Part shown: in pieces, positions 34,830 through 58,444 of the stretch
Layout: every line of letters begins with the position of its first letter
How positions within the stretch are numbered: position 1 is the first letter of the stretch
Assembly (NCBI RefSeq): GCF_003945595.2
Contig: NW_024104506.1
Location: forward strand, 733,975-797,974
Length of the DNA: 64,000 bases
Source: Pipra filicauda
Lineage: Eukaryota; Chordata; Aves; Passeriformes; Pipridae
Direction of reading: 5' to 3'
Translations under genes and position numbers: made by a program
The notes under the pieces: model-generated
Told to the model about the DNA's origin: nothing
Database searches by the model: none
The model's input: the letters and a program-made list of their open reading frames with translations, nothing else

Positions 34830-36696
34830 AGAACATACCAGGAATGACAGCAGCCTTGAAGGACAAGCTCAGCCATCTCAGCTCCTGCCCCGGCCTCCAC
34901 GGAGATGCAGTGTCCATGAGGAGAGCTCTGCTGTGTCCCTCCTCCTGCTACTCTTGCTCAGAGGACCAGGGAACTGCCTGTCACACCTGAACTGGATGTG
35001 CTGGAACCAGCATATCTGCAGCAGGTTGAGGGGCATTCAGAGGCACAGCCAAAAATTTCATTCTCTTTCCCATCTCTGTCATCTCTGTAGGAGGATATGA
35101 AGGAAAACCAGGGAAGGGTGTGATCTATTCCCATCGGCACTCGATAACCCCATCGCAGACCTGCAAAGCTCTCTTGGTTGGCACTCACAATAGAACCACT
35201 ACTTCCAGCACTGGCTTCTCACCAGTCCACAGAGGTTCTTTAGTCTTCCCTGGAGAGACACGGAAGGACTAGAGAAGGTGTCTCTCTTTGCATAGAACAG
35301 ACAAGTCTTGAGCACATACCTGGTGTTGGTGTGGGGCCATGACCCTGAGCAAGTACAATTGCCATCGGCCTCCGGGGGGGGCCTTGAAGCTAGGTGGGAG
35401 TGTCTCGGTGTCACTTTGCATTTATGGTACTAAACCCTGGCAAAGCCCCTGGATGCAGCTCTGGGATGTGCTTCTGTGCACAGAGCTCCCCATGCCCATC
35501 CCTCAGGCTGTGGGGCATCTCAGATAGTGGCAGAGCAGGTGGCACCCCACAAGGGTTGAAGTGCATCCAGGCTCCGGGCGTGGCAGCCGGAGCCCCAGGA
35601 GATACTGCCCCTGCTGCCATGAACTGTCTGTCTGGGTGTGTGTGCAAGGGAAGGACTGGTGTGTCTGAAAACCATTGTGTGACCGAGCAGTGAGTCCCTG
35701 CCAGGGCACCACTGGCCGACTGGCCATCCACCAGGACCCCAGAGGCCATTTTCCAGCACTGCTATGCAGTACGTCGTTCCCAGTCTGTCCGTACAACTGA
35801 GGTTGCCCCATCCCAGGGACAGAATCTGGCACTTCCCCTTGTTGAACTTCCTCTGGTGGATGATTGCCCAAACGTCTAATTTGAGGTCTCTCTGCACTGC
35901 CTCCCTCTTCCATGAGGCCCTAGAGTGTCCCAATGGCCCTTTGATTCCAGGGGAGTCTGCAGTGTTCAGTGTTCCAGGTGTTACCTGAAGCCCCATATTG
36001 TCACAATGGAACTAAAATGAGAGAGGATCTCCTTTCTAAAACGACTTAGTACATCAGAAGTTTTATCTTAGGTAAAAATGGTATCCTAATTCTCTTAAGA
36101 CTTCAGTTATTTTTAGGAAGAGATGTAGATAACACATGGAAATGAATAGAGAGTGTATCGTATGCCCATCTTCAAGAAATTAGCTTACATGCCTCAGAAA
36201 TCTTCTTTAATAAGAGATTGTTCTGTTAAGAAGAAAGTCGATTAAATATTGTTTAAGCAAATGGGAAGTTCTAAGACACATATCTTAGTTGGTCCTAGAA
36301 CATTTAATTTAGGAGTTAGAGGTCGGATAGATCAAGCAGAGACGCTACGAGGCCTGATTAGCGGGAAGACCACTCTCCGAATATGACTGCCCCCCCCCGA
36401 AAAAATGGACGCTAGATGGCAGTCTTTCTCCACGAATAAAACCCAAGACGCTATATGACCTCAAAATCATAACCGAATTCTCCACTGCTGGTGAAGGAGG
36501 AAGGAGTCTTTCAAGTGTCACTGTATTTATATTCCGAAATTTATACTAGATCTTGGATCCATGCATGGCAGAATACCCCATGTATTCCCAACTGACATAT
36601 TAAAGAAATGTTCGATCCAATGGTTTCTGGTCATTGGATTTAATTCTTTTTTTCCCCCCTTTGATTCCATGAAATTACAAAGATATCTTTTAGGGT
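34830..36696 (+). repeat. Partial forward unit at the left array edge
   Basis: It starts with a short piece of unit core at 34830-34900, jumps to the right-arm end at about 34915 and then follows the unit to its last base. It therefore equals roughly the final 1.8 kb of a unit with an internal deletion. Some positions match the diverged reverse copy better than the inner units do. With 30463-34760 it forms a large inverted repeat whose centre is near 34.8 kb. Confidence 0.82.
35705..35910 (-). mobile_element. CR1 fragment in the partial forward unit
   Basis: Same reverse-transcriptase fragment as at 32055-32260, here on the minus strand. It reads KLDVWAIIHQ before the KFNKGKC motif, an intermediate form between the outer and inner units. 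Confidence 0.7.
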
Positions 36697-36724
36697 GTGT
36701 TTAATACCATGAAGTCCCGCCTCC

Positions 36725-38960
36725 GAGTGCCCGTCAACCTGCTGCAGATTTGCTGGTTCCAGCACATCCAGTTCAGATGTGACAGGCTGTTCCCTGGTCC
36801 TCTGAGCAAGAGGAGCAGGAGGAGGGACACAGAAGAGCTCTCCTCAGAGAGGCTGCATCTCCATGAATTTCAAAGCAGGTGGGAGATGCCATGCCACGAC
36901 CGAGCTTTCCCTGGGGAAGGTGCTTTTCTAATACACTTCCTCTCCGTAGCACTGGTGCCACAGCCCCTGACAAAAGCCTAGGTGGTCTTTGTCACTGGCA
37001 GAAGTGTTCCTGTTACCAGTTGGGATGCTCCCCGGGACAGGCCAGGAGAGGTTGACCCGGGGAGCTGAGCCGGGAGGGATATTCTGCCTCTCGTGCCCCT
37101 CGACCCTTCTCAAAAGTGCGTGCCGTGGAGGAGAATTCCGGAGTCTCCCCGGGTCAGCAAAAGAGAGATGAGAGGGATGAGACGATGGCCACGAAAAAAG
37201 CTCATGGTCTTTCAATCTTGAACTCGTCCATAGCAATCCTCACCCCTCCCCCCTAACCCGGCCCCGCCGCCTCCGCACTGCAGAGCTCTGACCGCCGCGC
37301 CGCTGACGCTGCTCTCGCCGACCCTTCGCATCCAGTCCGCACCCGACGAGAGCCCGAGAGGCGTCGATGCCCGGCACAGTACGCGGGCTGATTTGGATGA
37401 GGAGGGCAGTGGACGGAGACGAAGACAGAGGTGGGAAAGAGGTGGAGAGGAGACGGAGAGGAGGTCTTCCCCTTTCCTACTTTCCTTTCTCTCCTGCTTT
37501 GCTTAGTCGCGCAGCTTCCCATTCTTCCGTGACTCCAAAAATCCACCTGTCTTTCCCGCACTCATCTCTCCAGCAACTCTAATGGACACATCCACAACCG
37601 CACACCTTGAGAGTCTCGTCAAATTGTTCTCCGTATCGTCCTGTTTCTGGACCCTTTCTTCTGGGAAACAACATCCAGTGCAAAAAGCAATTCTGATGGC
37701 TTTTCGTCTTTATCTCCCAGTTAGTGTCTGCAGGCAGAGCCCAGGTACAGCAAGACGCATTGGTAGTCCAGGGAGGGCAGTGAAATCACCATAAAGTGTT
37801 CACACGCCAAACTACGTATCGGCGATTTTATCCATTTCTACCGGCAGCTCCTGGGTCACAGCCTCGAACTCCTCGCACGTGCTACTAAAGTGTGCAGAAA
37901 ACTGCGGGCAGCAGTGGGGCGGATTTCGTTGTCGGGAGATGGTCGTTGGACCTTCCTCTAACTCTCCCGGCCCCGTCTTGGGGACGCGGCGCTGTGAAGA
38001 ACCTACCAGGCAGGACGGCAGCCTCGAGGGACCTGCACGGCAACTCCAGCCGCGGCCCCACGGTCCCCGGGCGCCAGCCTTGCACAGCGAGCAGAACCAC
38101 GACCAGCGCCGCCAGTCCCGCTCTCCACCAGCGCCGCCAGTCCCGCTCTCCACCAGCGCCGCATCAGCCGATTCGCCGCCCAGCCTCTTGCTTTCCCCGA
38201 CAACCCCGTCTCTCTGCTCCGGCCGGGTCGCCTCCTCTCCCCCTCCTCTTCCTCCTCTCTCTTCGTCTCCGTCCACTGTCCTTCTCATCCGAATCAGCCC
38301 GCGTACTGTGCCGGGCATCGACGCCTCTCGGGCTCTCGTCGGGTGCGGACTGGATGCGGAGGGCCGACGAGAGTGGCGGCAGCGGCGCGGCGGTCAGAGC
38401 TCTGCACCGCGGAGGCGGCGGGGCCGGGCTAGGTGGGGGGGGTGAGGATTGGAATCGAGGTATTCAAGATTGACAGATCATGAACTTTTTTCGTGACCAT
38501 CATCTGTTCCCTCTCATCTCTCTTTTGCTGAGCGGGGGAGACTCCGGAATTCTTCTCCACGGCAAGCACTTTTGAGAAAGGTCGAGGGGCACGAGAGGCA
38601 GAACATCCCTCCCGGCTCAGTTCCCCGGGTCAACCTCTCCTGGCCTGTCCCGGGGAGCATCCCAACTGGTAACAGGAACACTTCTGCCCGTGACAATGAC
38701 CGCCTGGGCTTTTGTCAGGGGCTGTGGCACCAGTGCTATGGAGAGGAAGTGTATTAGAAAAGCACCTTCCCCAGGGAAAGCTCGGTCGTGGCATGGCATC
38801 TCCCACCTGCTTTGGACTTTCTGGCGATGCAGCCTCTCTGAGGAGAGCTCTTCTGTGTCCCTCCTCCTGCTCCTCTTGCTCAGAGGACCAGGGAACAGCC
38901 TGTCACATCTGAACTGGATGTGCTGGAACCAACACATCTGCAACAGGTTGACGGGCACTC
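36725..38960. repeat. Inverted repeat inside unit 1 (same in every unit)
   Basis: The left arm 36725-37460 is the reverse complement, with moderate divergence, of the right arm 38230-38960. The outer ends read gagtgcccgtcaacct on the left and aggttgacgggcactc on the right. The arms are about 735 bp and the spacer about 770 bp. Inner arm ends carry the 'gatgcccggcacagtacgcggg' block. Equivalent pairs start about 3.86 kb apart in units 2-5. Confidence 0.88.
38093..38162. repeat. Short tandem duplication in the unit core
   Basis: The word 'cagcgccgccagtcccgctctccac' is present twice in tandem and begins a third time. The same duplication is present in all five units. Confidence 0.85.
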
Positions 38961-39559
38961 TGAGGCACAGCCTAAACGTTCATTCTCTTTCCCATCGCTC
39001 TCAACTCAGTAGAAGGACATGAAGGACCACCAGGGAAGGGTGTGCTCCATTCCCATGTGCACTGGCTTCTCTTCCAGCCCACAGAGGTCCTTTAGCCTTC
39101 CCTGGAGAGACACGTATGGACTAGAGAGGGTGGATCTCTTTGCATTGAAGAAACAAGTCTTGAGCACACACCTGGTGGTGGTGTGGGGAGATGATCCTGA
39201 GCAAGTACAATTGCCATCGGCCTCCTGGGGGAGCCTTGAAATTATGGGGACAAAGAGTGTCTCGTTGTCACTTGGAATTTACGGTACTAAACCCTGGCAA
39301 AGCCCCTGGATGCAGCTCTGGGATGTGCTTCTGTGCACAGAGCTCCCCGTGCCCATCCCTCAGGCCGTGGGACTTCTCAGATAGTGGCAGAGCAAGTGGC
39401 ACCCCACAACGGCTGAGTTGTATCCAGGCTCCGGGTGTGGCAGCAGGAGCCCCAGGAGATACTGCCCCTGCTGCCATGAACTCTCTGTCTGGGTGTGTGC
39501 CAGGGAAGGACTCGTGTGTCTGAAAACCATTGTGTGAGCGAGCAGTGAGCCCCCGCCAG

Positions 39560-39775
39560 GGCACCACTGACTCTTGACCAGCTGGCCATCCACCACGACC
39601 CCAGAGGCCATTTTCCAGCACTGCTATGCAGTACGTCGTTCCCAGTCTGTCCGTACAACTGAGGTTGCCCCATCCCAGGGACAGAATCTGGCACTTCCCC
39701 TTGTTGAACTTCCTCTGGTGGATGATTGCGCAAACGTTTAATTTGAGGTCTCTCTGCACTGCCTCCCTCTTCCAG
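39560..39775 (-). mobile_element. CR1 fragment, unit 1
   Basis: The minus-strand reading KFNKGKCQILSLGWGNLSC is preceded by KLNVCAIIHQ, the inner-unit variant. Confidence 0.7.
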
Positions 39776-40559
39776 GAGGCCCTAGAGTGTCCCAATGGCC
39801 TCTTGATTCCAGGGGAGTCTGCAGTGTTCAGTGTTCCAGGTGTTACCTGAAGCCCCATATTGTCACAATGGAACTAAAATGAGAGAGGATCTCCTTTCTA
39901 AAACGACTTAGTACATCAGAAGTTTTATCTTAGGTAAAAATGGTATCCTAATTCTCTTAAGACTTCAGTTATTTTTAGGAAAGAGGATGTAGATAACACA
40001 TGGAAATGAATAGAGAGTGTATCGTATGCCCATCTTCAAGAAATTAGCTTACATGCCTCAGAAATCTTCTTTAATAAGAGATTGTTCTGTTAAGAAGAAA
40101 GTCGATTAAATATTGTTTAAGCAAATGGGAAGTTCTAAGACACATATCTTAGTTGGTCCTAGAACATTTAATTTAGGAGTTAGAGGTCGGATAGATCAAG
40201 CAGAGACGCTACGAGGCCTGATTAGCGGGAAGACCACTCTCCGAATATGACTGCCCCCCCCGAAAAAATGGACGCTAGATGGCAGTCTTTCTCCACGAAT
40301 AAAACCCAAGACGCTATATGACCTCAAAATCATAACCGAATTCTCCACTGCTGGTGAAGGAGGAAGGAGTCTTTCAAGTGTCACTGTATTTATATTCCGA
40401 AATTTATACTAGATCTTGGATCCATGCATGGCAGAATACCCCATGCATTCCCAACTGACATATTAAAGAAATGTTCGATCCAATGGTTTCTGGTCATTGG
40501 ATTTAATTCTTCTTTTTCCCCCTTTGATTCCATGAAATTACAAAGATATCTTTTAGGGT

Positions 40560-43500
40560 GTGTTTAATACCATGAAGTCTCGCCTCCGAGTGCCCGTCAA
40601 CCTGCTGCAGATTTGCTGGTTCCAGCACATCCAGTTCAGATGTGACAGGCTGTTCCCTGGTCCTCTGAGCAAGAGGAGCAGGAGGAGGGACACAGAAGAG
40701 CTCTCCTCAGAGAGGCTGCATCTCCATGAATTTCAAAGCAGGTGGGAGATGCCATGCCACGACCGAGCTTTCCCTGGGGAAGGTGCTTTTCTAATACACT
40801 TCCTCTCCGTAGCACTGGTGCCACAGCCCCTGACAAAAGCCTAGGTGGTCTTTGTCACTGGCAGAAGTGTTCCTGTTACCAGTTGGGATGCTCCCCGGGA
40901 CAGGCCAGGAGAGGTTGACCCGGGGAGCTGAGCCGGGAGGGATATTCTGCCTCTCGTGCCCCTCGACCCTTCTCAAAAGTGCGTGCCGTGGAGGAGAATT
41001 CCGGAGTCTCCCCGGGTCAGCAAAAGAGAGATGAGAGGGATGAGACGATGGCCACGAAAAAAGCTCATGGTCTTTCAATCTTGAACTCGTCCATAGCAAT
41101 CCTCACCCCTCCCCCCTAACCCGGCCCCGCCGCCTCCGCACTGCAGAGCTCTGACCGCCGCGCCGCTGACGCTGCTCTCGCCGACCCTTCGCATCCAGTC
41201 CGCACCCGACGAGAGCCCGAGAGGCGTCGATGCCCGGCACAGTACGCGGGCTGATTTGGATGAGGAGGGCAGTGGACGGAGACGAAGACAGAGGTGGGAA
41301 AGAGGTGGAGAGGAGACGGAGAGGAGGTCTTCCCCTTTCCTACTTTCCTTTCTCTCCTGCTTTGCTTAGTCGCGCAGCTTCCCATTCTTCCGTGACTCCA
41401 AAAATCCACCTGTCTTTCCCGCACTCATCTCTCCAGCAACTCTAATGGACACATCCACAACCGCACACCTTGAGAGTCTCGTCAAATTGTTCTCCGTATC
41501 GTCCTGTTTCTGGACCCTTTCTTCTGGGAAACAACATCCAGTGCAAAAAGCAATTCTGATGGCTTTTCGTCTTTATCTCCCAGTTAGTGTCTGCAGGCAG
41601 AGCCCAGGTACAGCAAGACGCATTGGTAGTCCAGGGAGGGCAGTGAAATCACCATAAAGTGTTCACACGCCAAACTACGTATCGGCGATTTTATCCATTT
41701 CTACCGGCAGCTCCTGGGTCACAGCCTCGAACTCCTCGCACGTGCTACTAAAGTGTGCAGAAAACTGCGGGCAGCAGTGGGGCGGATTTCGTTGTCGGGA
41801 GATGGTCGTTGGACCTTCCTCTAACTCTCCCGGCCCCGTCTTGGGGACGCGGCGCTGTGAAGAACCTACCAGGCAGGACGGCAGCCTCGAGGGACCTGCA
41901 CGGCAACTCCAGCCGCGGCCCCACGGTCCCCGGGCGCCAGCCTTGCACAGCGAGCAGAACCACGACCAGCGCCGCCAGTCCCGCTCTCCACCAGCGCCGC
42001 CAGTCCCGCTCTCCACCAGCGCCGCATCAGCCGATTCGCCGCCCAGCCTCTTGCTTTCCCCGACAACCCCGTCTCTCTGCTCCGGCCGGGTCGCCTCCTC
42101 TCCCCCTCCTCTTCCTCCTCTCTCTTCGTCTCCGTCCACTGTCCTTCTCATCCAAATCAGCCCGCGTACTGTGCCGGGCATCGACGCCTCTCGGGCTCTC
42201 GTCGGGTGCGGACTGGATGCGGAGGGCCGACGAGAGTGGCGGCAGCGGCGCGGCGGTCAGAGCTCTGCACCGCGGAGGCGGCGGGGCCGGGCTAGGTGGG
42301 GGGGGTGAGGATTGGAATCGAGGTATTCAAGATTGACAGATCATGAACTTTTTTCGTGACCATCATCTGTTCCCTCTCATCTCTCTTTTGCTGAGCGGGG
42401 GAGACTCCGGAATTCTTCTCCACGGCAAGCACTTTTGAGAAAGGTCGAGGGGCACGAGAGGCAGAACATCCCTCCCGGCTCAGTTCCCCGGGTCAACCTC
42501 TCCTGGCCTGTCCCGGGGAGCATCCCAACTGGTAACAGGAACACTTCTGCCCGTGACAATGACCACCTGGGCTTTTGTCAGGGGCTGTGGCACCAGTGCT
42601 ATGGAGAGGAAGTGTATTAGAAAAGCACCTTCCCCAGGGAAAGCTCGGTCGTGGCATGGCATCTCCCACCTGCTTTGGACTTTCTGGCGATGCAGCCTCT
42701 CTGAGGAGAGCTCTTCTGTGTCCCTCCTCCTGCTCCTCTTGCTCAGAGGACCAGGGAACAGCCTGTCACATCTGAACTGGATGTGCTGGAACCAACACAT
42801 CTGCAACAGGTTGACGGGCACTCTGAGGCACAGCCTAAAGGTTCATTCTCTTTCCCATCGCTCTCAACTCAGTAGAAGGACATGAAGGACCACCAGGGAA
42901 GGGTGTGCTCCATTCCCATGTGCACTGGCTTCTCTTCCAGCCCACAGAGGTCCTTTAGCCTTCCCTGGAGAGACACGTATGGACTAGAGAGGGTGGATCT
43001 CTTTGCATTGAAGAAACAAGTCTTGAGCACACACCTGGTGGTGGTGTGGGGAGATGATCCTGAGCAAGTACAATTGCCATCGGCCTCCTGGGGGAGCCTT
43101 GAAATTATGGGGACAAAGAGTGTCTCGTTGTCACTTGGAATTTACGGTACTAAACCCTGGCAAAGCCCCTGGATGCAGCTCTGGGATGTGCTTCTGTGCA
43201 CAGAGCTCCCCGTGCCCATCCCTCAGGCCGTGGGACTTCTCAGATAGTGGCAGAGCAAGTGGCACCCCACAACGGCTGAGTTGTATCCAGGCTCCGGGTG
43301 TGGCAGCAGGAGCCCCAGGAGATACTGCCCCTGCTGCCATGAACTCTCTGTCTGGGTGTGTGCCAGGGAAGGACTCGTGTGTCTGAAAACCATTGTGTGA
43401 GCGAGCAGTGAGCCCCCGCCAGGGCACCACTGACTCTTGACCAGCTGGCCATCCACCACGACCCCAGAGGCCATTTTCCAGCACTGCTATGCAGTACGTC

Positions 43501-44422
43501 GTTCCCAGTCTGTCCGTACAACTGAGGTTGCCCCATCCCAGGGACAGAATCTGGCACTTCCCCTTGTTGAACTTCCTCTGGTGGATGATTGCGCAAACGT
43601 TTAATTTGAGGTCTCTCTGCACTGCCTCCCTCTTCCAGGAGGCCCTAGAGTGTCCCAATGGCCTCTTGATTCCAGGGGAGTCTGCAGTGTTCAGTGTTCC
43701 AGGTGTTACCTGAAGCCCCATATTGTCACAATGGAACTAAAATGAGAGAGGATCTCCTTTCTAAAACGACTTAGTACATCAGAAGTTTTATCTTAGGTAA
43801 AAATGGTATCCTAATTCTCTTAAGACTTCAGTCATTTTTAGGAAAGAGGATGTAGATAACACATGGAAATGAATAGAGAGTGTATCGTATGCCCATCTTC
43901 AAGAAATTAGCTTACATGCCTCAGAAATCTTCTTTAATAAGAGATTGTTCTGTTAAGAAGAAAGTCGATTAAATATTGTTTAAGCAAATGGGAAGTTCTA
44001 AGACACATATCTTAGTTGGTCCTAGAACATTTAATTTAGGAGTTAGAGGTCGGATAGATCAAGCAGAGACGCTACGAGGCCTGATTAGCGGGAAGACCAC
44101 TCTCCGAATATGACTGCCCCCCCCGAAAAAATGGACGCTAGATGGCAGTCTTTCTCCACGAATAAAACCCAAGACGCTATATGACCTCAAAATCATAACC
44201 GAATTCTCCACTGCTGGTGAAGGAGGAAGGAGTCTTTCAAGTGTCACTGTATTTATATTCCGAAATTTATACTAGATGTTGGATCCATGCATGGCAGAAT
44301 ACCCCATGCATTCCCAACTGACATATTAAAGAAATGTTCGATCCAATGGTTTCTGGTCATTGGATTTAATTCTTCTTTTTCCCCCTTTGATTCCATGAAA
44401 TTACAAAGATATCTTTTAGGGT
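40560..44422 (+). repeat. 3.86-kb tandem unit 2
   Basis: The unit is 3863 bp and nearly identical to unit 1, with single-base differences such as C/A in the Arg/Gln codon near 42153. The same arms, core, CR1 fragment and tail are present. Confidence 0.95.
43423..43638 (-). mobile_element. CR1 fragment, unit 2
   Basis: Same minus-strand reverse-transcriptase fragment as in unit 1, inner-unit variant. Confidence 0.7.
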
Positions 44423-47149
44423 GTGTTTAATACCATGAAGTCTCGCCTCCGAGTGCCCGTCAACCTGCTGCAGATTTGCTGGTTCCAGCACATCCAGTTC
44501 AGATGTGACAGGCTGTTCCCTGGTCCTCTGAGCAAGAGGAGCAGGAGGAGGGACACAGAAGAGCTCTCCTCAGAGAGGCTGCATCTCCATGAATTTCAAA
44601 GCAGGTGGGAGATGCCATGCCACGACCGAGCTTTCCCTGGGGAAGGTGCTTTTCTAATACACTTCCTCTCCGTAGCACTGGTGCCACAGCCCCTGACAAA
44701 AGCCTAGGTGGTCTTTGTCACTGGCAGAAGTGTTCCTGTTACCAGTTGGGATGCTCCCCGGGACAGGCCAGGAGAGGTTGACCCGGGGAGCTGAGCCGGG
44801 AGGGATATTCTGCCTCTCGTGCCCCTCGACCCTTCTCAAAAGTGCGTGCCGTGGAGGAGAATTCCGGAGTCTCCCCGGGTCAGCAAAAGAGAGATGAGAG
44901 GGATGAGACGATGGCCACGAAAAAAGCTCATGGTCTTTCAATCTTGAACTCGTCCATAGCAATCCTCACCCCTCCCCCCTAACCCGGCCCCGCCGCCTCC
45001 GCACTGCAGAGCTCTGACCGCCGCGCCGCTGACGCTGCTCTCGCCGACCCTTCGCATCCAGTCCGCACCCGACGAGAGCCCGAGAGGCGTCGATGCCCGG
45101 CACAGTACGCGGGCTGATTTGGATGAGGAGGGCAGTGGACGGAGACGAAGACAGAGGTGGGAAAGAGGTGGAGAGGAGACGGAGAGGAGGTCTTCCCCTT
45201 TCCTACTTTCCTTTCTCTCCTGCTTTGCTTAGTCGCGCAGCTTCCCATTCTTCCGTGACTCCAAAAATCCACCTGTCTTTCCCGCACTCATCTCTCCAGC
45301 AACTCTAATGGACACATCCACAACCGCACACCTTGAGAGTCTCGTCAAATTGTTCTCCGTATCGTCCTGTTTCTGGACCCTTTCTTCTGGGAAACAACAT
45401 CCAGTGCAAAAAGCAATTCTGATGGCTTTTCGTCTTTATCTCCCAGTTAGTGTCTGCAGGCAGAGCCCAGGTACAGCAAGACGCATTGGTAGTCCAGGGA
45501 GGGCAGTGAAATCACCATAAAGTGTTCACACGCCAAACTACGTATCGGCGATTTTATCCATTTCTACCGGCAGCTCCTGGGTCACAGCCTCGAACTCCTC
45601 GCACGTGCTACTAAAGTGTGCAGAAAACTGCGGGCAGCAGTGGGGCGGATTTCGTTGTCGGGAGATGGTCGTTGGACCTTCCTCTAACTCTCCCGGCCCC
45701 GTCTTGGGGACGCGGCGCTGTGAAGAACCTACCAGGCAGGACGGCAGCCTCGAGGGACCTGCACGGCAACTCCAGCCGCGGCCCCACGGTCCCCGGGCGC
45801 CAGCCTTGCACAGCGAGCAGAACCACGACCAGCGCCGCCAGTCCCGCTCTCCACCAGCGCCGCCAGTCCCGCTCTCCACCAGCGCCGCATCAGCCGATTC
45901 GCCGCCCAGCCTCTTGCTTTCCCCGACAACCCCGTCTCTCTGCTCCGGCCGGGTCGCCTCCTCTCCCCCTCCTCTTCCTCCTCTCTCTTCGTCTCCGTCC
46001 ACTGTCCTTCTCATCCAAATCAGCCCGCGTACTGTGCCGGGCATCGACGCCTCTCGGGCTCTCGTCGGGTGCGGACTGGATGCGGAGGGCCGACGAGAGT
46101 GGCGGCAGCGGCGCGGCGGTCAGAGCTCTGCACCGCGGAGGCGGCGGGGCCGGGCTAGGTGGGGGGGGTGAGGATTGGAATCGAGGTATTCAAGATTGAC
46201 AGATCATGAACTTTTTTCGTGACCATCATCTGTTCCCTCTTATCTCTCTTTTGCTGAGCGGGGGAGACTCCGGAATTCTTCTCCACGGCAAGCGCTTTTG
46301 AGAAAGGTCGAGGGGCACGAGAGGCAGAACATCCCTCCCGGCTCAGTTCCCCGGGTCAACCTCTCCTGGCCTGTCCCGGGGAGCATCCCAACTGGTAACA
46401 GGAACACTTCTGCCCGTGACAATGACCACCTGGGCTTTTGTCAGGGGCTGTGGCACCAGTGCTATGGAGAGGAAGTGTATTAGAAAAGCACCTTCCCCAG
46501 GGAAAGCTCGGTCGTGGCATGGCATCTCCCACCTGCTTTGGACTTTCTGGCGATGCAGCCTCTCTGAGGAGAGCTCTTCTGTGTCCCTCCTCCTGCTCCT
46601 CTTGCTCAGAGGACCAGGGAACAGCCTGTCACATCTGAACTGGATGTGCTGGAACCAACACATCTGCAACAGGTTGACGGGCACTCTGAGGCACAGCCTA
46701 AAGGTTCATTCTCTTTCCCATCGCTCTCAACTCAGTAGAAGGACATGAAGGACCACCAGGGAAGGGTGTGCTCCATTCCCATGTGCACTGGCTTCTCTTC
46801 CAGCCCACAGAGGTCCTTTAGCCTTCCCTGGAGAGACACGTATGGACTAGAGAGGGTGGATCTCTTTGCATTGAAGAAACAAGTCTTGAGCACACACCTG
46901 GTGGTGGTGTGGGGAGATGATCCTGAGCAAGTACAATTGCCATCGGCCTCCTGGGGGAGCCTTGAAATTATGGGGACAAAGAGTGTCTCGTTGTCACTTG
47001 GAATTTACGGTACTAAACCCTGGCAAAGCCCCTGGATGCAGCTCTGGGATGTGCTTCTGTGCACAGAGCTCCCCGTGCCCATCCCTCAGGCCGTGGGACT
47101 TCTCAGATAGTGGCAGAGCAAGTGGCACCCCACAACGGCTGAGTTGTAT

Positions 47150-48040
47150 CCAGCTCCGGTGTGGCAGCAGAGCCCCAGGAGAGACTGCCCCTGCTGCATG
47201 AACTCCTCTGTCTGGGTGTTGCCAGGGAAGGACTCGTGTGGGCTAAACCAGTGTGTGAGCGAAAGCAGTGAGCCCCGACCAGGGCAACCCTGACTCTTGA
47301 CCACTGGCCATCCCACCACGACCCCCAGAAGGCCCATTTTTCAGCACTGCTATGCATTACGTCTTCCCAGTCTGGTCCGTTAACAACTGAGGTGCCCCAT
47401 GCCCCAGGGCAGAATCTGCACTTTCCCTTGTTGAAACTTCCTCGGGTGGATAATTGCGCAAACGTTAATTTGAAGGTATCACTCTGCAACTGCCTCCCTC
47501 CATTCCAGGAGGCCCTAGAGTGTCACAATGGCCCCTTGAGTCCATGGGAATCTGCAGTGTTCAGTGTTCCATGTGTTACAGGAGGCCCCATATTGTCACA
47601 ATGGCACTGAAATGAGAGAGGATCACCTTTCTAAACGACTTAGTAAATCAGAAGTTTTTCTTAGATAAAAATGGGATCCGAATTCTCTTAAACTTCATTA
47701 TGTTTAGGAAAGAGGATGTAGAATAAACACATGGAATGAAATAGAGAGTGGACGTATGCCCATCTTCAAGAAATTAACTTACCAAATGCCTCAAAATCTT
47801 CTTTAAGAAGAGATTAGTTCCTGTTAAAAGACAGTCGATAAAATAATGGTTTAAAGCAAATGGGAGTTCTAAGCACATATCGTAGTTGGTCCTAGAACAT
47901 TGAATTTAGGAGTTAGAGGTCGGACGAGCAGCAGAGACGCTACGAGGGCCTATTAGCGGGAAGACCACGCTCCGAATAGGACGGGCCCCCCCCGAAAAAT
48001 GGACGCAGATGGCAAGTCTTTCACACGATAAAACCCAAGA
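47150..48040. other. Indel-dense stretch in unit 3
   Basis: Compared with the same place in the other units, this 0.9 kb has frequent one-base insertions and deletions, many in short homopolymers, and few clean substitutions. The net length change is only a few bases. The edges are abrupt. This is the pattern of poorly corrected long-read consensus more than of biological decay. Confidence 0.75.
47290..47505 (-). mobile_element. CR1 fragment, unit 3 (frame disrupted)
   Basis: The position equals the CR1 fragment of other units, but the KFNKGKC region is broken by the local indels. Confidence 0.6.
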
Positions 48041-48288
48041 CGCTATATGACCTCAAAATCATAACCGAATTCTCCACTGCTGGTGAAGGAGGAAGGAGTC
48101 TTTCAAGTGTCACTGTATTTATATTCCGAAATTTATACTAGATCTTGGATCCATGCATGGCAGAATACCCCATGCATTCCCAACTGACATATTAAAGAAA
48201 TGTTCGATCCAATGGTTTCTGGTCATTGGATTTAATTCTTCTTTTTCCCCCTTTGATTCCATGAAATTACAAAGATATCTTTTAGGGT

Positions 48289-51200
48289 GTGTTTAATACC
48301 ATGAAGTCTCGCCTCCGAGTGCCCGTCAACCTGCTGCAGATTTGCTGGTTCCAGCACATCCAGTTCAGATGTGACAGGCTGTTCCCTGGTCCTCTGAGCA
48401 AGAGGAGCAGGAGGAGGGACACAGAAGAGCTCTCCTCAGAGAGGCTGCATCTCCATGAATTTCAAAGCAGGTGGGAGATGCCATGCCACGACCGAGCTTT
48501 CCCTGGGGAAGGTGCTTTTCTAATACACTTCCTCTCCGTAGCACTGGTGCCACAGCCCCTGACAAAAGCCTAGGTGGTCTTTGTCACTGGCAGAAGTGTT
48601 CCTGTTACCAGTTGGGATGCTCCCCGGGACAGGTCAGGAGAGGTTGACCCGGGGAGCTGAGCCGGGAGGGATATTCTGCCTCTCGTGCCCCTCGACCCTT
48701 CTCAAAAGTGCGTGCCGTGGAGGAGAATTCCGGAGTCTCCCCGGGTCAGCAAAAGAGAGATGAGAGGGATGAGACGATGGCCACGAAAAAAGCTCATGGT
48801 CTTTCAATCTTGAACTCGTCCATAGCAATCCTCACCCCTCCCCCCTAACCCGGCCCCGCCGCCTCCGCACTGCAGAGCTCTGACCGCCGCGCCGCTGACG
48901 CTGCTCTCGCCGACCCTTCGCATCCAGTCCGCACCCGACGAGAGCCCGAGAGGCGTCGATGCCCGGCACAGTACGCGGGCTGATTTGGATGAGGAGGGCA
49001 GTGGACGGAGACGAAGACAGAGGTGGGAAAGAGGTGGAGAGGAGACGGAGAGGAGGTCTTCCCCTTTCCTACTTTCCTTTCTCTCCTGCTTTGCTTAGTC
49101 GCGCAGCTTCCCATTCTTCCGTGACTCCAAAAATCCACCTGTCTTTCCCGCACTCATCTCTCCAGCAACTCTAATGGACACATCCACAACCGCACACCTT
49201 GAGAGTCTCGTCAAATTGTTCTCCGTATCGTCCTGTTTCTGGACCCTTTCTTCTGGGAAACAACATCCAGTGCAAAAAGCAATTCTGATGGCTTTTCGTC
49301 TTTATCTCCCAGTTAGTGTCTGCAGGCAGAGCCCAGGTACAGCAAGACGCATTGGTAGTCCAGGGAGGGCAGTGAAATCACCATAAAGTGTTCACACGCC
49401 AAACTACGTATCGGCGATTTTATCCATTTCTACCGGCAGCTCCTGGGTCACAGCCTCGAACTCCTCGCACGTGCTACTAAAGTGTGCAGAAAACTGCGGG
49501 CAGCAGTGGGGCGGATTTCGTTGTCGGGAGATGGTCGTTGGACCTTCCTCTAACTCTCCCGGCCCCGTCTTGGGGACGCGGCGCTGTGAAGAACCTACCA
49601 GGCAGGACGGCAGCCTCGAGGGACCTGCACGGCAACTCCAGCCGCGGCCCCACGGTCCCCGGGCGCCAGCCTTGCACAGCGAGCAGAACCACGACCAGCG
49701 CCGCCAGTCCCGCTCTCCACCAGCGCCGCCAGTCCCGCTCTCCACCAGCGCCGCATCAGCCGATTCGCCGCCCAGCCTCTTGCTTTCCCCGACAACCCCG
49801 TCTCTCTGCTCCGGCCGGGTCGCCTCCTCTCCCCCTCCTCTTCCTCCTCTCTCTTCGTCTCCGTCCACTGTCCTTCTCATCCAATCAGCCCGCGTACTGT
49901 GCCGGGCATCGACGCCTCTCGGGCTCTCGTCGGGTGCGGACTGGATGCGGAGGGCCGACGAGAGTGGCGGCAGCGGCGCGGCGGTCAGAGCTCTGCACCG
50001 CGGAGGCGGCGGGGCCGGGCTAGGTGGGGGGGGTGAGGATTGGAATCGAGGTATTCAAGATTGACAGATCATGAACTTTTTTCGTGACCATCATCTGTTC
50101 CCTCTCATCTCTCTTTTGCTGAGCGGGGGAGACTCCGGAATTCTTCTCCACGGCAAGCACTTTTGAGAAAGGTCGAGGGGCACGAGAGGCAGAACATCCC
50201 TCCCGGCTCAGTTCCCCGGGTCAACCTCTCCTGGCCTGTCCCGGGGAGCATCCCAACTGGTAACAGGAACACTTCTGCCCGTGACAATGACCACCTGGGC
50301 TTTTGTCAGGGGCTGTGGCACCAGTGCTATGGAGAGGAAGTGTATTAGAAAAGCACCTTCCCCAGGGAAAGCTCGGTCGTGGCATGGCATCTCCCACCTG
50401 CTTTGGACTTTCTGGCGATGCAGCCTCTCTGAGGAGAGCTCTTCTGTGTCCCTCCTCCTGCTCCTCTTGCTCAGAGGACCAGGGAACAGCCTGTCACATC
50501 TGAACTGGATGTGCTGGAACCAACACATCTGCAACTGGTTGACGGGCACTCTGAGGCACAGCCTAAAGGTTCATTCTCTTTCCCATCGCTCTCAACTCAG
50601 TAGAAGGACATGAAGGACCACCAGGGAAGGGTGTGCTCCATTCCCATGTGCACTGGCTTCTCTTCCAGCCCACAGAAGTTCTTTAGCCTTCCCTGGAGAG
50701 ACACGGAAGGACTAGAGAGGGTGACTCTCTTTGCATTGAAGAAACAAGTCTTGAGCACACACCTGGTGGTGGTGTGGGGAGATGACCCTGAGGAAGTACA
50801 ATTGCCATCGGCCTCCTGGGGGAGCCTTGAAATTATGGGGACAAAGAGTGTCTCGTTGTCACTTGGAATTTACGGTACTAAACCCTGGCAAAGCCCCTGG
50901 ATGCAGCTCTGGGATGTGCTTCTGTGCACAGAGCTCCCCGTGCCCATCCCTCAGGCCGTGGGACTTCTCAGATAGTGGCAGAGCAAGTGGCACCCCACAA
51001 CGGCTGAGTTGTATCCAGGCTCCGGGTGTGGCAGCAGGAGCCCCAGGAGATACTGCCCCTGCTGCCATGAACTCTCTGTCTGGGTGTGTGCCAGGGAAGG
51101 ACTCGTGTGTCTGAAAACCATTGTGTGAGCGAGCAGTGAGCCCCCGCCAGGGCACCACTGACTCTTGACCAGCTGGCCATCCACCACGACCCCAGAGGCC

Positions 51201-52150
51201 ATTTTCCAGCACTGCTATGCAGTACGTCGTTCCCAGTCTGTCCGTACAACTGAGGTTGCCCCATCCCAGGGACAGAATCTGGCACTTCCCCTTGTTGAAC
51301 TTCCTCTGGTGGATGATTGCGCAAACGTTTAATTTGAGGTCTCTCTGCACTGCCTCCCTCTTCCATGAGGCCCTAGAGTGTCCCAATGGCCCTTTGATTC
51401 CAGGGGAGTCTGCAGTGTTCAGTGTTCCAGGTGTTACCTGAAGCCCCATATTGTCACAATGGAACTAAAATGAGAGAGGATCTCCTTTCTAAAACGACTT
51501 AGTACATCAGAAGTTTTATCTTAGGTAAAAATGGTATCCTAATTCTCTTAAGACTTCAGTTATTTTTAGGAAAGAGGATGTAGATAACACATGGAAATGA
51601 ATAGAGAGTGTATCGTATGCCCATCTTCAAGAAATTAGCTTACATGCCTCAGAAATCTTCTTTAATAAGAGATTGTTCTGTTAAGAAGAAAGTCAATTAA
51701 ATATTGTTTAAGCAAATGGGAAGTTCTAAGACACATATCTTAGTTGGTCCTAGAACATTTAATTTAGGAGTTAGAGGTCGGATAGATCAAGCAGAGACGC
51801 TACGAGGCCTGATTAGCGGGAAGACCACTCTCCGAATATGACTGCCCCCCCCGAAAAAATGGACGCTAGATGGCAGTCTTTCTCCACGAATAAAACCCAA
51901 GACGCTATATGACCTCAAAATCATAACCGAATTCTCCACTGCTGGTGAAGGAGGAAGGAGTCTTTCAAGTGTCACTGTATTTATATTCCGAAATTTATAC
52001 TAGATCTTGGATCCATGCATGGCAGAATACCCCATGCATTCCCAACTGACATATTAAAGAAATGTTCGATCCAATGGTTTCTGGTCATTGGATTTAATTC
52101 TTCTTTTTCCCCCTTTGATTCCATGAAATTACAAAGATATCTTTTAGGGT
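48289..52150 (+). repeat. 3.86-kb tandem unit 4
   Basis: The unit is 3862 bp. It differs from its neighbours by a lost A near 49882, which fuses two frames, and by a few substitutions at 50680-50800. The same organisation is present. Confidence 0.95.
51151..51366 (-). mobile_element. CR1 fragment, unit 4
   Basis: Same minus-strand fragment, inner-unit variant (KLNVCAIIHQ). Confidence 0.7.
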
Positions 52151-55100
52151 GTGTTTAATACCATGAAGTCTCGCCTCCGAGTGCCCGTCAACCTGCTGCA
52201 GATTTGCTGGTTCCAGCACATCCAGTTCAGATGTGACAGGCTGTTCCCTGGTCCTCTGAGCAAGAGGAGCAGGAGGAGGGACACAGAAGAGCTCTCCTCA
52301 GAGAGGCTGCATCTCCATGAATTTCAAAGCAGGTGGGAGATGCCATGCCACGACCGAGCTTTCCCTGGGGAAGGTGCTTTTCTAATACACTTCCTCTCCG
52401 TAGCACTGGTGCCACAGCCCCTGACAAAAGCCTAGGTGGTCTTTGTCACCGGCAGAAGTGTTCCTGTTACCAGTTGGGATGCTCCCCGGGACAGGCCAGG
52501 AGAGGTTGACCCGGGGAGCTGAGCCGGGAGGGATATTCTGCCTCTCGTGCCCCTCGACCCTTCTCAAAAGTGCGTGCCGTGGAGGAGAATTCCGGAGTCT
52601 CCCCGGGTCAGCAAAAGAGAGATGAGAGGGATGAGACGATGGCCACGAAAAAAGCTCATGGTCTTTCAATCTTGAACTCGTCCATAGCAATCCTCACCCC
52701 TCCCCCCTAACCCGGCCCCGCCGCCTCCGCACTGCAGAGCTCTGACCGCCGCGCCGCTGACGCTGCTCTCGCCGACCCTTCGCATCCAGTCCGCACCCGA
52801 CGAGAGCCCGAGAGGCGTCGATGCCCGGCACAGTACGCGGGCTGATTTGGATGAGGAGGGCAGTGGACGGAGACGAAGACAGAGGTGGGAAAGAGGTGGA
52901 GAGGAGACGGAGAGGAGGTCTTCCCCTTTCCTACTTTCCTTTCTCTCCTGCTTTGCTTAGTCGCGCAGCTTCCCATTCTTCCGTGACTCCAAAAATCCAC
53001 CTGTCTTTCCCGCACTCATCTCTCCAGCAACTCTAATGGACACATCCACAACCGCACACCTTGAGAGTCTCGTCAAATTGTTCTCCGTATCGTCCTGTTT
53101 CTGGACCCTTTCTTCTGGGAAACAACATCCAGTGCAAAAAGCAATTCTGATGGCTTTTCTTCTTTATCTCCCAGTTAGTGTCTGCAGGCAGAGCCCAGGT
53201 ACAGCAAGACGCATTGGTAGTCCAGGGAGGGCAGTGAAATCACCATAAAGTGTTCACACGCCAAACTACGTATCGGCGATTTTATCCATTTCTACCGGCA
53301 GCTCCTGGGTCACAGCCTCGAACTCCTCGCACGTGCTACTAAAGTGTGCAGAAAACTGCGGGCAGCAGTGGGGCGGATTTCGTTGTCGGGAGATGGTCGT
53401 TGGACCTTCCTCTAACTCTCCCGGCCCCGTCTTGGGGACGCGGCGCTGTGAAGAACCTACCAGGCAGGACGGCAGCCTCGAGGGACCTGCACAGCAACTC
53501 CAGCCGCGGCCCCACGGTCCCCGGGCGCCAGCCTTGCACAGCGAGCAGAACCACGACCAGCGCCGCCAGTCCCGCTCTCCACCAGCGCCGCCAGTCCCGC
53601 TCTCCACCAGCGCCGCATCAGCCGATTCGCCGCCCAGCCTCTTGCTTTCCCCGACAACCCCGTCTCTCTGCTCCGGCCGGGTCGCCTCCTCTCCCCCTCC
53701 TCTTCCTCCTCTCTCTTCGTCTCCGTCCACTGTCCTTCTCATCCAAATCAGCCCGCGTACTGTGCCGGGCATCGACGCCTCTCGGGCTCTCGTCGGGTGC
53801 GGACTGGATGCGGAGGGCCGACGAGAGTGGCGGCAGCGGCGCGGCGGTCAGAGCTCTGCACCGCGGAGGCGGCGGGGCCGGGCTAGGTGGGGGGGGTGAG
53901 GATTGGAATCGAGGTATTCAAGATTGACAGATCATGAACTTTTTTCGTGACCATCATCTGTTCCCTCTCATCTCTCTTTTGCTGAGCGGGGGAGACTCCG
54001 GAATTCTTCTCCACGGCAAGCACTTTTGAGAAAGGTCGAGGGGCACGAGAGGCAGAACATCCCTCCCGGCTCAGTTCCCCGGGTCAACCTCTCCTGGCCT
54101 GTCCCGGGGAGCATCCCAACTGGTAACAGGAACACTTCTGCCCGTGACAATGACCGCCTGGGCTTTTGTCAGGGGCTGTGGCACCAGTGCTATGGAGAGG
54201 AAGTGTATTAGAAAAGCACCTTCCCCAGGGAAAGCTCGGTCGTGGCATGGCATCTCCCACCTGCTTTGGACTTTCTGGCGATGCAGCCTCTCTGAGGAGA
54301 GCTCTTCTGTGTCCCTCCTCCTGCTCCTCTTGCTCAGAGGACCAGGGAACAGCCTGTCACATCTGAACTGGATGTGCTGGAACCAACACATCTGCAACAG
54401 GTTGACGGGCACTCTGAGGCACAGCCTAAAGGTTCATTCTCTTTCCCATCGCTCTCAACTCAGTAGAAGGACATGAAGGACCACCAGGGAAGGGTGTGCT
54501 CCATTCCCATGTGCACTGGCTTCTCTTCCAGCCCACAGAGGTCCTTTAGCCTTCCCTGGAGAGACACGTATGGACTAGAGAGGGTGGATCTCTTTGCATT
54601 GAAGAAACAAGTCTTGAGCACACACCTGGTGGTGGTGTGGGGAGATGATCCTGAGCAAGTACAATTGCCATCGGCCTCCTGGGGGAGCCTTGAAATTATG
54701 GGGACAAAGAGTGTCTCGTTGTCACTTGGAATTTACGGTACTAAACCCTGGCAAAGCCCCTGGATGCAGCTCTGGGATGTGCTTCTGTGCACAGAGCTCC
54801 CCGTGCCCATCCCTCAGGCCGTGGGACTTCTCAGATAGTGGCAGAGCAAGTGGCACCCCACAACGGCTGAGTTGTATCCAGGCTCCGGGTGTGGCAGCAG
54901 GAGCCCCAGGAGATACTGCCCCTGCTGCCATGAACTCTCTGTCTGGGTGTGTGCCAGGGAAGGACTCGTGTGTCTGAAAACCATTGTGTGAGCGAGCAGT
55001 GAGCCCCCGCCAGGGCACCACTGACTCTTGACCAGTTGGCCATCCACCACGACCCCAGAGGCCATTTTCCAGCACTGCTATGCAGTACGTCGTTCCCAGT

Positions 55101-56014
55101 CTGTCCGTACAACTGAGGTTGCCCCATCCCAGGGACAGAATCTGGCACTTCCCCTTGTTGAACTTCCTCTGGTGGATGATTGCCCAAACCTCTGACTTGA
55201 GGTCTCTCTGCACTGCCTCCCTCTTCCATGAGGCCCTAGAGTGTCCCAATGACCTCTTGATTCCAGGGGAGTCTGCAGTGTTCAGTGTTCCAGGTGTTAC
55301 CTGAAGCCCCATATTGTCACAATGGAACTAAAATGAGAGAGGATCTCCTTTCTAAAACGACTTAGTACATCAGAAGTTTTATCTTAGGTAAAAATGGTAT
55401 CCTAATTCTCTTAAGACTTCAGTTATTTTTAGGAAAGAGGATGTAGATAACACATGGAAATGAATAGAGAGTGTATCGTATGCCCATCTTCAAGAAATTA
55501 GCTTACATGCCTCAGAAATCTTCTTTAATAAGAGATTGTTCTGTTAAGAAGAAAGTCAATTAAATATTGTTTAAGCAAATGGGAAGTTCTAAGACACATA
55601 TCTTAGTTGGTCCTAGAACATTTAATTTAGGAGTTAGAGGTCGGATAGATCAAGCAGAGACGCTACGAGGCCTGATTAGCGGGAAGACCACTCTCCGAAT
55701 ATGACTGCCCCCCCCCGAAAAAATGGACGCTAGATGGCAGTCTTTCTCCACGAATAAAACCCAAGAGGCTATATGACCTCAAAATCATAACCGAATTCTC
55801 CACTGCTGGTGAAGGAGGAAGGAGTCTTTCAAGTGTCACTGTATTTATATTCCGAAATTTATACTAGATCTTGGATCTATGCATGGCAGAATACCCCATG
55901 TATTCCCAACTGACATATTAAAGAAATGTTCGATCCAATGGTTTCTGGTCATTGGATTTAATTCTTTTTTCCCCCCTTTTGATTCCATGAAATTACAAAG
56001 ATATCTTTTAGGGT
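52151..56014 (+). repeat. 3.86-kb tandem unit 5
   Basis: The unit is 3864 bp. It is like the inner units for most of its length. Its CR1 block has the edge-type variant (KSEVWAIIHQ) and its tail has small differences (aagaggctat for aagacgctat). Confidence 0.95.
55014..55229 (-). mobile_element. CR1 fragment, unit 5 (edge variant)
   Basis: The minus-strand fragment reads KSEVWAIIHQ, as in the diverged reverse unit at 32.1 kb and unlike units 1-4. Confidence 0.7.
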
Positions 56015-56485
56015 GTGTTTAATACCATGAAGTCCTGCCTCCGAGTGCCCGTCAACCTGCTGCAGATTTGCTGGTTCCAGCACATCCAGTTCAGATGTGA
56101 CAGGCTGTTCCCTGGTCCTCTGAGCAAGAGGAGCAGGAGGAGGGACACAGAAGAGATCTCCTCACGGAGGTTGCATCTCCATGAATTTCAAAGCAGGTGG
56201 GAGATGCCATGCCACATCCAAGCTTTCTCTGGGGAAGGTGCTTCTCCTATGCACTGCCTCGCCGTAGCACTGGTGCCACAGCCCCTGACAAAAGCCCAGG
56301 TTATCTTTGTCGCCAGCAGAAGTGCTCCTGCTGCCAGCAGGGATGCTCCCCGGGACAGGTCAGGAGAGGCTGACCCGGGGAGCTGAGCCTGGAGGGATAT
56401 TATGCCTCTCGTGCTCCTCAAAAATTGTCAAAAGCGTGTGCCCTGGAGGACAATGCAAGATTCTCCCCATGCCAGCAAAAGAGAA
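56015..56485 (+). repeat. Partial unit at the right array edge
   Basis: It covers the first about 470 bp of a unit (most of the left arm). Divergence rises after about 56140, and several variants (cacatcc, tttctctgggg, tgcttctcc) match the diverged reverse unit rather than the inner units. The unit stops at about 56485, where the about 190-bp repeat begins. Confidence 0.85.
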
Positions 56486-56489
56486 ATCT

Positions 56490-56905
56490 GGAAGCTTTGG
56501 CTTTGTGCTGCAGTTGATGTGTCAGCCTGGAGATTCCATGCGCAGCAAGAGTTTTTTGCGCTGACACCTTTTGTGTGGGAGGAATCTTTTTTTATATGCA
56601 ATTTTGGGAGTCTGGCTCTCAGTTGGGAGGCAGGTCTGAAAAGAGGAAATGACAGCCCTTATCATCAGGAAAGAAAGTCGGCAATTTTTGGCTTTGTGGT
56701 GCATTTGGTTTGTCTGCCTGGAGACTCCATGGGGAGCAAGAGTTTTCTGTGCTGGCAATTTTGCTATAGGGGGAATATTTGTTTGTATGCAACTACAGAA
56801 GTCGGATTGTCAGTTGGGAGGCAAATCTGAAAAGAGGAATCAACAGCTCAGTTCCGCCGGAAACAATGCCTGGAAGATTTGGCTTTGTGGTTGTCTCAGT
56901 CTGAT
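56490..56905 (+). repeat. About 190-bp tandem repeat, two-plus units
   Basis: Units start at about 56495, 56686 and 56877 (spacing about 191 bp). They are related to the 186-bp units at 20440-20778 and share gtcagcctggagact/cgccat, agcaagagttttctgtg and gttgggaggcaggtctgaaaagagg. The third unit is incomplete. Confidence 0.8.
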
Positions 56906-57765
56906 GAGACTGAACTGTTTGCTAAGGAGGATGAGTTATGAGATAGACCAAACTCCTCTCTCTCTGCAATTGTAATGTCAAATTAAGGGGCTTTACTCGA
57001 GGAAAATGTGGGGAAAAAACAGAAGAAATAACAACCCTTTATTAAAAGATATATGTATGTTGGCCACTGAATTTATCTCCAACTGTAACACACTTCTTCC
57101 TCCCTTTCAAAAACCAGACCCTGATGGAACACAGAGGCCAGCAAAGGACAAAAAACTGTGCTTGAAGCCCCATCTACTGACAAACAGTAGAAGTGTTGCT
57201 AAGCTACAGTGATATTCCAGAGAACATCCCTTGGTACAACTGGTATTGCTTCTTAAAAAAGAAGTAAAACACAAACATTTTGAGATGTGATCCAACTACA
57301 AAATGTTCTCTTCGAATCACACAGGACATCTCTCCCAAGAAAACAGCTAGCCAGAAAGCAAAAAATCCATACAGACTAAAAAGCGATATACTTTACCAAA
57401 TCCACCCTATTCTGTTGACACTCCTAGACTTAGAATTAGGAAAACACAAACAGGCATGCTGACCTCAAACCTGCATTTGAACACCCACACTTTCCAGCCT
57501 GTGTCAGGAAAAGGTCTGCACGTTACTTCTGACTAAGGAAGCATCCCGAAGGACATATTTCTCACCACTTACTCTTGACAGAAATCGACTCAAAACCTTG
57601 CTGCAGAGTGCCTGTACAGTGCAGTGGGGGAAGACACATCGCTGCCTGATATGAGAAGGGTAACGTATCACTTCTCATTTGAGTCCATGAAATGAAAACA
57701 CATCACTGGCAAGCAACAGTCTGCTGAGTTCTGTCACAACATCATCCATGCTTTCCTTTAGGGCC
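56906..57765. other. No recognisable gene
   Basis: AT-rich, apparently unique sequence between the repeats and the CpG block. Short open frames are seen, none with a domain that I recognise. Confidence 0.45.
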
Positions 57766-57769
57766 ATGA

Positions 57770-58187: not shown

Positions 58188-58444
58188 GTAAGTTCTTTAA
58201 CAGCTCCTTAAACTTTTCCTTCCAGGTCATATTACTGGATTATTTTGTGGTGGTTTATTAGAAAATTATAATAAAGTAGATAACAGACATTAATGGATTC
58301 CTTTTTGATGTTTCAGTTCCACAGTTAGATTTGGATGTGTATGAGGCAGTGAGACAGAGTGTTTTCACTTTTCCCATCCTCTTTGCCCTTCCTGTTAGGA
58401 TGTTAAAAATTAATTTAGTGGTGTCGTCTTTCCTTATGAGCTGG

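What the first reader, a model, noticed from the sequence alone, without database searches (positions are those of the whole stretch)
36697..56014. Five near-identical 3.86-kb composite units in tandem
Units start at 36697, 40560, 44423, 48289 and 52151 (steps 3863, 3863, 3866, 3862 and 3864). Sequence is almost unchanged between units, so amplification or homogenisation is recent. Each unit combines a CpG-rich core, an inverted repeat, a CR1 fragment and an AT-rich tail. It is a large macrosatellite with its own CpG island per unit, and I do not recognise it as any named avian satellite.
Basis: seen in the sequence. Interest (0 to 1): 0.9.

Follow-up and report, generated by a model that had tools for sequence, protein, structure and literature searches.

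The report
Manakin CpG-island macrosatellite at palindrome centre
A bird (very probably manakin) chromosome carries five or more near-identical 3.9-kb DNA units in a row, each with a CpG-rich core between two mirror-image arms; it looks like a recently expanded, non-coding member of a scattered repeat family, and what it does is still unknown.

Summary
In detail: five head-to-tail units of 3,862-3,866 bp at exactly the stated coordinates. Four are 99.2-99.8% identical; the third differs mainly by a noisy 872-bp patch that looks like unpolished read sequence, so five is a minimum. The genome is very probably Pipra filicauda, a manakin. The array is not isolated: its core has at least 35 further copies on 19 other contigs, some in a 2.2-kb tandem form. 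Its right flank, with CENPC-like exons, recurs at 99.8-99.9% on two contigs; one, C36, is a palindrome with 13.7-kb arms and unit pieces at its centre. Best reading: an inverted-repeat element at the heart of ampliconic palindromes, expanded in tandem here. No convincing coding signal. Its CpG island has lost CpG more slowly than the rest of the unit, implying an unmethylated, promoter-like germline state. A CTCF-boundary role is not supported. Transcription, true copy number, chromosome and repeat-library matches could not be tested. New member of a known kind; moderate interest.

The parts
36697..40559 (+). unit 1 of the 3.86-kb tandem array
40560..44422 (+). unit 2 (99.84% to unit 1)
44423..48288 (+). 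unit 3; holds the noisy 872-bp patch
48289..52150 (+). unit 4 (99.56% to unit 1)
52151..56014 (+). unit 5 (99.43% to unit 1)
36719..37455 (+). arm 1 of the inverted repeat (unit 23-759), shown for unit 1; same place in the other units
37466..37995 (+). core (unit 770-1299) between the arms; 40 copies scored in the genome
38229..38966 (-). arm 2 of the inverted repeat (unit 1533-2270), about 93% to arm 1 in reverse complement
37146..38645 (.). CpG island of unit 1 (unit about 450-1950): CpG o/e 0.58-1.05
   Evidence: CpG-decay test
38102..38162 (+). 25-bp minisatellite, 2.4 copies, inside the CpG island (found in all five units)
38967..39796 (.).
39796..40559 (+). AT-rich tail (unit 3100-3863) with an AATAAA at unit 3602
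40269..40287 (+). CTCF-like motif (score 14.75 with a matrix recalled from memory), intact in units 1, 2, 4, 5 and in the left partial unit, broken in unit 3 by the noisy patch; not more conserved than its neighbours
47152..48027 (.). noisy patch in unit 3, near mid-array: probable unpolished read sequence or assembly seam
35208..36696 (+). left partial unit (unit 2363-3863), about 96%
56015..56487 (+). right partial unit (unit 1-473), about 90% to the array but 473/473 identical to C36:18959-19431 and 468/473 to C1368:23571-24043
31245..35044 (-). old, degenerate unit in reverse orientation, in four pieces of 72-91% identity
31245..36687 (.). palindrome at the left edge of the array: arms 31245-33076 and 34897-36687, 91% identical
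56488..64000 (+). right flank (191-bp repeat, CpG-rich stretch, CENPC-like exons); together with 56015-56487 it is 99.91% identical to both C36 arms and 99.76% to C1368

Best explanation
This is a non-coding macrosatellite made by recent tandem expansion of an inverted-repeat element that sits at the centre of ampliconic palindromes in a manakin genome. Shown: the five units, the inverted arms, dispersed older relatives, a 2.2-kb tandem form elsewhere, the recurring CENPC-like flank, and slower CpG decay in the island than in the rest of the unit. Inferred: (a) copy number grew by unequal exchange or template switching, which hairpin-prone arms favour, and conversion between copies left a mosaic of 88-100% identity; (b) inversions have happened around the arms, since in the array the core lies the other way round, relative to the tail that follows it, than in C36 and most other mapped copies; (c) the CpG island is kept unmethylated in the germline, most simply because it is an active promoter, probably of non-coding transcripts that can fold on themselves. 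Step (c) is the weakest.
For: Tandem units with private variants. 35 further core copies on 19 other contigs (40 scored of 139 candidates); unit relatives on 14 other contigs (19 of 1866 candidates scored). 2.2-kb tandem at C645, with like spacing on C1317, C1057 and C1026. C36 palindrome, 13.7-kb arms, 99.5%. Flank copies 99.76-99.95% identical. Identity of unit 5 to a C36 copy varies from 88 to 100% along its length. Core orientation. CpG-to-TpG/CpA decay divided by the GpC equivalent: 0.83 (bootstrap over sites 0.59-1.13) in the island, 1.73 (1.21-2.44) outside; bootstrap share with island at or above outside 0.0015. CpG o/e of four 8-kb samples of the same contig 0.14-0.26. Coding: 4 of 4 unit ORFs without a Pfam family, two unit queries against 5.8 billion proteins without a match, stops in the consensus in all six frames of arm and core, 1 of 86 gap runs in the core and 47 of 155 in the arms a multiple of three. 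No Rfam family in the window at gathering score.
Against: No transcription, methylation or read data. The aligned copies are related, so the bootstrap over sites overstates certainty, and some sub-bins run against the trend (arm 450-600 ratio 1.27, core 180-360 ratio 2.18). Two tail windows are also fairly CpG-rich. The synonymous share is somewhat above expectation in two core frames (0.329 against 0.281, 0.320 against 0.262), though these frames hold stops. C36 and C1368 could be alternative haplotypes or assembly by-products rather than further loci. The amplification mechanism is inferred from structure only.
Confidence: 0.6

Rival explanations
1. Assembly artefact: one real unit was duplicated in the assembly, or inverted contigs are by-products of long-read chemistry.
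For: Noisy 872-bp patch near mid-array; the window ends at the contig end, and 10 of the 14 other family-bearing contigs of known length are under 110 kb.
Against: Units 1, 2, 4 and 5 differ from each other at 6 to 30 sites, several shared with the left and right partial copies, which a copied unit would not show. C36 has a 2.9-kb asymmetric spacer, unlike a simple fold-back read. The tail-to-arm junction of the tandem recurs on other contigs.
Confidence: 0.12
2. Tandem array of a protein-coding gene (a D4Z4/DUX4-like or HINT1W-like amplicon), the CpG island being its promoter and exon.
For: CpG island per unit; open frames up to 216 aa in the GC-rich core; an AATAAA in the tail; CENPC-like exons in the amplified flank. 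Phase differences in substitutions are borderline in places (arm window 525: P 0.027; core window 225: P 0.040; 14 windows tested), and two core frames have a synonymous excess.
Against: No Pfam family in 4 of 4 unit ORFs, no relatives among 5.8 billion proteins for two unit queries, stops in all six consensus frames and mostly frame-breaking gaps over 23 arms and 17 cores left after removing near-duplicates from 37 and 26.
Confidence: 0.08
3. DXZ4-like boundary array: each unit binds CTCF and organises chromosome folding.
For: One CTCF-like motif (score 14.75) in 4 of 5 units, and 19/19 in six relatives that are 7-14% diverged around it.
Confidence: 0.1
4. Neutral segmental duplication: the array does nothing, and the CpG richness is a by-product of GC-biased gene conversion.
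For: No clear constraint in the coding or motif tests; the mosaic identity suggests repeated conversion.
Against: GC-biased conversion should protect GpC as well as CpG; in the island CpG is lost no faster than GpC, in the rest of the unit about 1.7 times faster.
Confidence: 0.3

Closest known systems
Pericentromeric amplicons of chicken dot chromosomes and the 5,648-bp HINT1W tandem (PMC9974502; section 9 and passages seen)
   Same: Large tandem or multicopy units in a bird, spread together with satellite DNA; an olfactory receptor is among them, and an olfactory receptor pseudogene lies near this array
   Different: Those carry genes or lncRNAs, many with testis-biased expression, at known places; here no gene was found in the unit and neither place nor expression is known
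D4Z4 macrosatellite of human 4q (features recalled; titles and abstract starts seen)
   Same: Tandem units of a few kb, CpG-rich, near identical
   Different: No homeobox or other Pfam family in the unit
DXZ4 macrosatellite of the mammalian X (features recalled; titles and abstract starts seen)
   Same: CpG-rich kb-sized unit with a CTCF-like motif
   Different: Motif not specially conserved; unit has large inverted arms; sex linkage not shown
Ampliconic palindromes of sex chromosomes (recalled)
   Same: C36: arms of 13.7 kb at 99.5% around a spacer
   Different: Chromosome unknown; the centre is made of a repeat family that can expand in tandem
Short avian satellites such as the 41-bp CNM and PO41 (passages seen)
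   Same: Tandem repeats in birds
   Different: Unit length 41 bp against 3.86 kb; no sequence comparison was possible

Membership tests
macrosatellite | head-to-tail units over 1 kb, near identical | tested here: met
macrosatellite | copy number varies between individuals | not testable with these tools
   one assembly only; C36 and C1368 show other arrangements of the same elements but may be haplotypes or paralogs
macrosatellite | CpG-rich unit | tested here: met
D4Z4-type macrosatellite | homeobox (DUX) reading frame in each unit | tested here: not met
   no Pfam match in 4 of 4 unit ORFs; no protein relatives for two queries
DXZ4-type boundary array | conserved CTCF site per unit | tested here: inconclusive
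   motif present but no more conserved than neighbours
DXZ4-type boundary array | CTCF binding and chromatin loops | not testable with these tools
   no ChIP or Hi-C data
ampliconic palindrome | long inverted arms above 99% identity | tested here: met
   on contig C36: 13.7 kb, 99.5%; in the window itself only 1.8-kb arms at 91%
dot-chromosome pericentromeric amplicon | pericentromeric place and testis-biased expression | not testable with these tools
   no mapping or expression data; GC of four samples of the contig 44.5-48.2%
named avian satellites | sequence match to a described satellite | not testable with these tools
   no repeat library; paper searches only

The most novel reading that the evidence does not exclude
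The units are germline promoters that fire into their own inverted arms and so make long hairpin RNA; the array is a source of double-stranded or small RNA in a genetic conflict around an amplified, truncated centromere-protein gene (CENPC-like) carried in the palindrome arms.
Probability: 0.05. Interest if true: 0.9.

Novelty: new member of a known kind. Interest (0 to 1): 0.45.

Why it matters
Large tandem arrays with a CpG island per unit are well studied in mammals. A search for 'macrosatellite' with 'bird' gave 78 papers; by title and abstract start, none of the 25 listed describes an avian macrosatellite. If the island is an unmethylated germline promoter, the locus would show how an inverted-repeat promoter element seeds both palindromes and tandem arrays, and the CENPC-like copies beside it would make a possible conflict over chromosome transmission testable.

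Tried and rejected
Coding unit: not supported, with the borderline signals told under that rival. Structured or transfer RNA: no Rfam family at gathering score and no tRNA in the window. CTCF boundary: weakened. W linkage: the CHD1-like family PF13907 gave two matches, which I read as CHD1 and CHD2 without a W copy; this is weak, since a diverged W copy could be missed. Telomeric place: no TTAGGGTTAGGG in the window, in C36 or in C1368:18861-54070; the genome-wide pattern search did not complete. Genome-wide searches for the 191-bp repeat, olfactory receptors (PF13853), CENP-C (PF11699) and P0001 were asked for and not answered. Of 40 patch substitutions in unit 3, 14 have a base also seen at that site in some copy outside the array; I still read the patch as noise because of the 67 inserted or deleted bases and the T>G excess. 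I first took the opposite core orientation on C36 as a flip made by the arms; checking again, the mapped copies on C1451, C1483, C1489, C1534 and two on C1368 share that orientation relative to the following tail, so the array may be the derived form and the cause of the inversion is open. The window's exon differs from P0001 by at least one residue. One search was a badly posed paper search and gave nothing useful; (PMC7875000, passages) was read for the sex of the sample and did not tell it.

Full report
Observation. Units 1, 2, 4 and 5 agree at 99.22-99.84%; unit 3 agrees with them at 95.7-96.1%. Outside one stretch unit 3 differs from unit 1 by six substitutions; inside window 47152-48027 it has 40 substitutions (18 T>G) and 67 inserted or deleted bases in 872 bp, where units 2, 4 and 5 have 1, 4 and 10 differences. 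The patch begins about 10.5 kb from the left edge of the array and ends about 8 kb from its right edge; I infer that reads anchored in the flanks no longer polish the consensus there. Five is therefore a minimum and not a measured copy number.

Anatomy. Each unit has arm 1 (unit 23-759), a core (770-1299), arm 2 in reverse complement (1533-2270; 685 of 738 aligned columns identical, longest perfect run 106 bp), a CpG-poor middle and an AT-rich tail. CpG o/e is 0.58-1.05 in the 300-bp windows starting at 450-1650 and 0.14-0.36 in those starting at 1950-3150; in the tail, windows 3300 and 3450 rise again to 0.73-0.74 with 9 and 11 CpGs. Four 8-kb samples elsewhere on the contig have 0.14-0.26. 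A 25-bp minisatellite sits in the island.

Where it is. The CENPC-like exon at 58817-59704 matches, at a reported 100% over 96% of the query, a Pipra filicauda protein on a 68,750-bp contig, although at least one residue differs. Contig C1368 of the window's own genome has that length and holds those exons. The genome is therefore very probably the wire-tailed manakin (lineage). The window is the last 64 kb of the 797,974-bp contig C857.

Family. The unit has relatives on 14 other contigs (19 of 1866 candidates scored, the array itself not among the rows). The core has 40 scored matches of 139 candidates on 20 contigs: 5 in this array, 35 elsewhere at 84-98%. At C645 the family forms 2.2-kb tandem units that follow a tail piece; spacing near 2.2 kb also occurs on C1317 and C1057 and C1026. 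I read the 3.86-kb unit as a composite of an arm-and-core satellite with the middle and tail piece. No other scored core exceeds 98% to the array.

Palindromes. The left edge of the array is an inverted pair, 31245-33076 and 34897-36687, 91%, over an old reverse unit. Contig C36 is a palindrome, 1-13692 against 30323-16619 at 99.5% with a 2.9-kb spacer. Both its arms hold the same flank as window 56015-64000, at 99.91%; C1368 has it at 99.76%. The right partial unit is 473 of 473 identical to C36 and 468 of 473 to C1368. In C36 the closest core (98%) lies opposite to its orientation in the array relative to the following tail; copies on C1451, C1483, C1489, C1534 and two on C1368 do likewise. 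An inversion has thus happened, but not necessarily through the arms, and the array may be the derived form. Along unit 5, identity to a C36 copy runs between 88% and 100% in 150-bp steps, a mosaic as conversion would leave. Whether C36 and C1368 are alleles, paralogs or by-products of assembly is open.

Tests of function. Coding: no Pfam family in four of four unit ORFs; no relatives among 5.8 billion proteins for the 193-aa island frame or for an alignment of four arm frames. Over 23 arms and 17 cores, left from 37 and 26 after dropping near-duplicates, the consensus has stops in all six frames, 47 of 155 gap runs in arms and 1 of 86 in cores are multiples of three, and phase differences in substitutions are weak (whole arm P 0.054, whole core P 0.146; 2 of 14 windows below 0.05). 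The synonymous share is above expectation in two core frames (0.329 against 0.281 and 0.320 against 0.262). I judge this not to be a coding signal. RNA families: none at gathering score. CpG decay: at sites where at least 30% of copies keep CG, the share turned to TG or CA, divided by the same share at GpC sites, is 0.83 (0.59-1.13) over 72 CpG sites in inner arms and core, and 1.73 (1.21-2.44) over 47 sites in outer arm, middle and tail (sub-bins, of which arm 450-600 and core 180-360 run against the trend). The reading is that the island escapes germline methylation; relatedness of the copies weakens the statistics. CTCF: a recalled matrix scores 14.75 in 4 of 5 units, a value that 5-10% of 200 random units reach, and the motif ranks 442 of 746 windows for conservation, so a boundary role is not supported.

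Comparison. The closest described case I saw is the chicken: its dot chromosomes carry amplified genes and lncRNAs in pericentromeric heterochromatin, an olfactory receptor in 386 copies, with testis-biased or testis-specific expression in seven of ten, and the W carries a 5,648-bp HINT1W unit 52 times (PMC9974502, section 9 and passages seen). The manakin array shares the size class and an olfactory receptor pseudogene nearby, but no gene was found in the unit. Human D4Z4 and DXZ4 are compared from recall. Paper searches for avian macrosatellites, satellites with inverted repeats, manakin satellites and passerine satellitomes listed nothing that, by title and abstract start, describes this repeat; only open-licence papers are held, and no preprints.

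Verdict. A real, recent macrosatellite-type array and a new member of a known kind, notable for the combination of CpG island, large inverted arms and palindromic amplicons. Function is inferred, not shown.

Noticed in passing
58817-62597, + strand: CENPC-like exons (one source labels the matching protein APLF) without the upstream CENPC exons of another P. filicauda protein (P0026): a 5'-truncated copy. The flank that holds them recurs on C1368 and in both arms of C36.
   Followed up: partly
56488-56891 and 20441-20777: A repeat of about 191-bp period beside the macrosatellite; it forms longer arrays on C36 (32.4-35.4 kb) and C1368 (37.0-39.8 and 52.5-54.1 kb). The abundance search did not complete.
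   Followed up: partly
29604-30102, - strand: Olfactory receptor pseudogene, split over two frames (7tm_1 and 7tm_4 matches).
   Followed up: no
24899-25444, - strand: 182-aa open frame with a weak Pfam match under the cut-off (PF08800, 21.6 bits against 22.4); a 110-bp piece recurs inverted at 20771-20880 at 91%.
   Followed up: no
15675-16129 and 19969-20446: Inverted pair of about 480 bp, 76% identical.
   Followed up: no
G000:C36 (loci L030, L035-L037): Most of this 35.9-kb contig is a palindrome with 13.7-kb arms at 99.5%; a real amplicon or an assembly by-product.
   Followed up: partly
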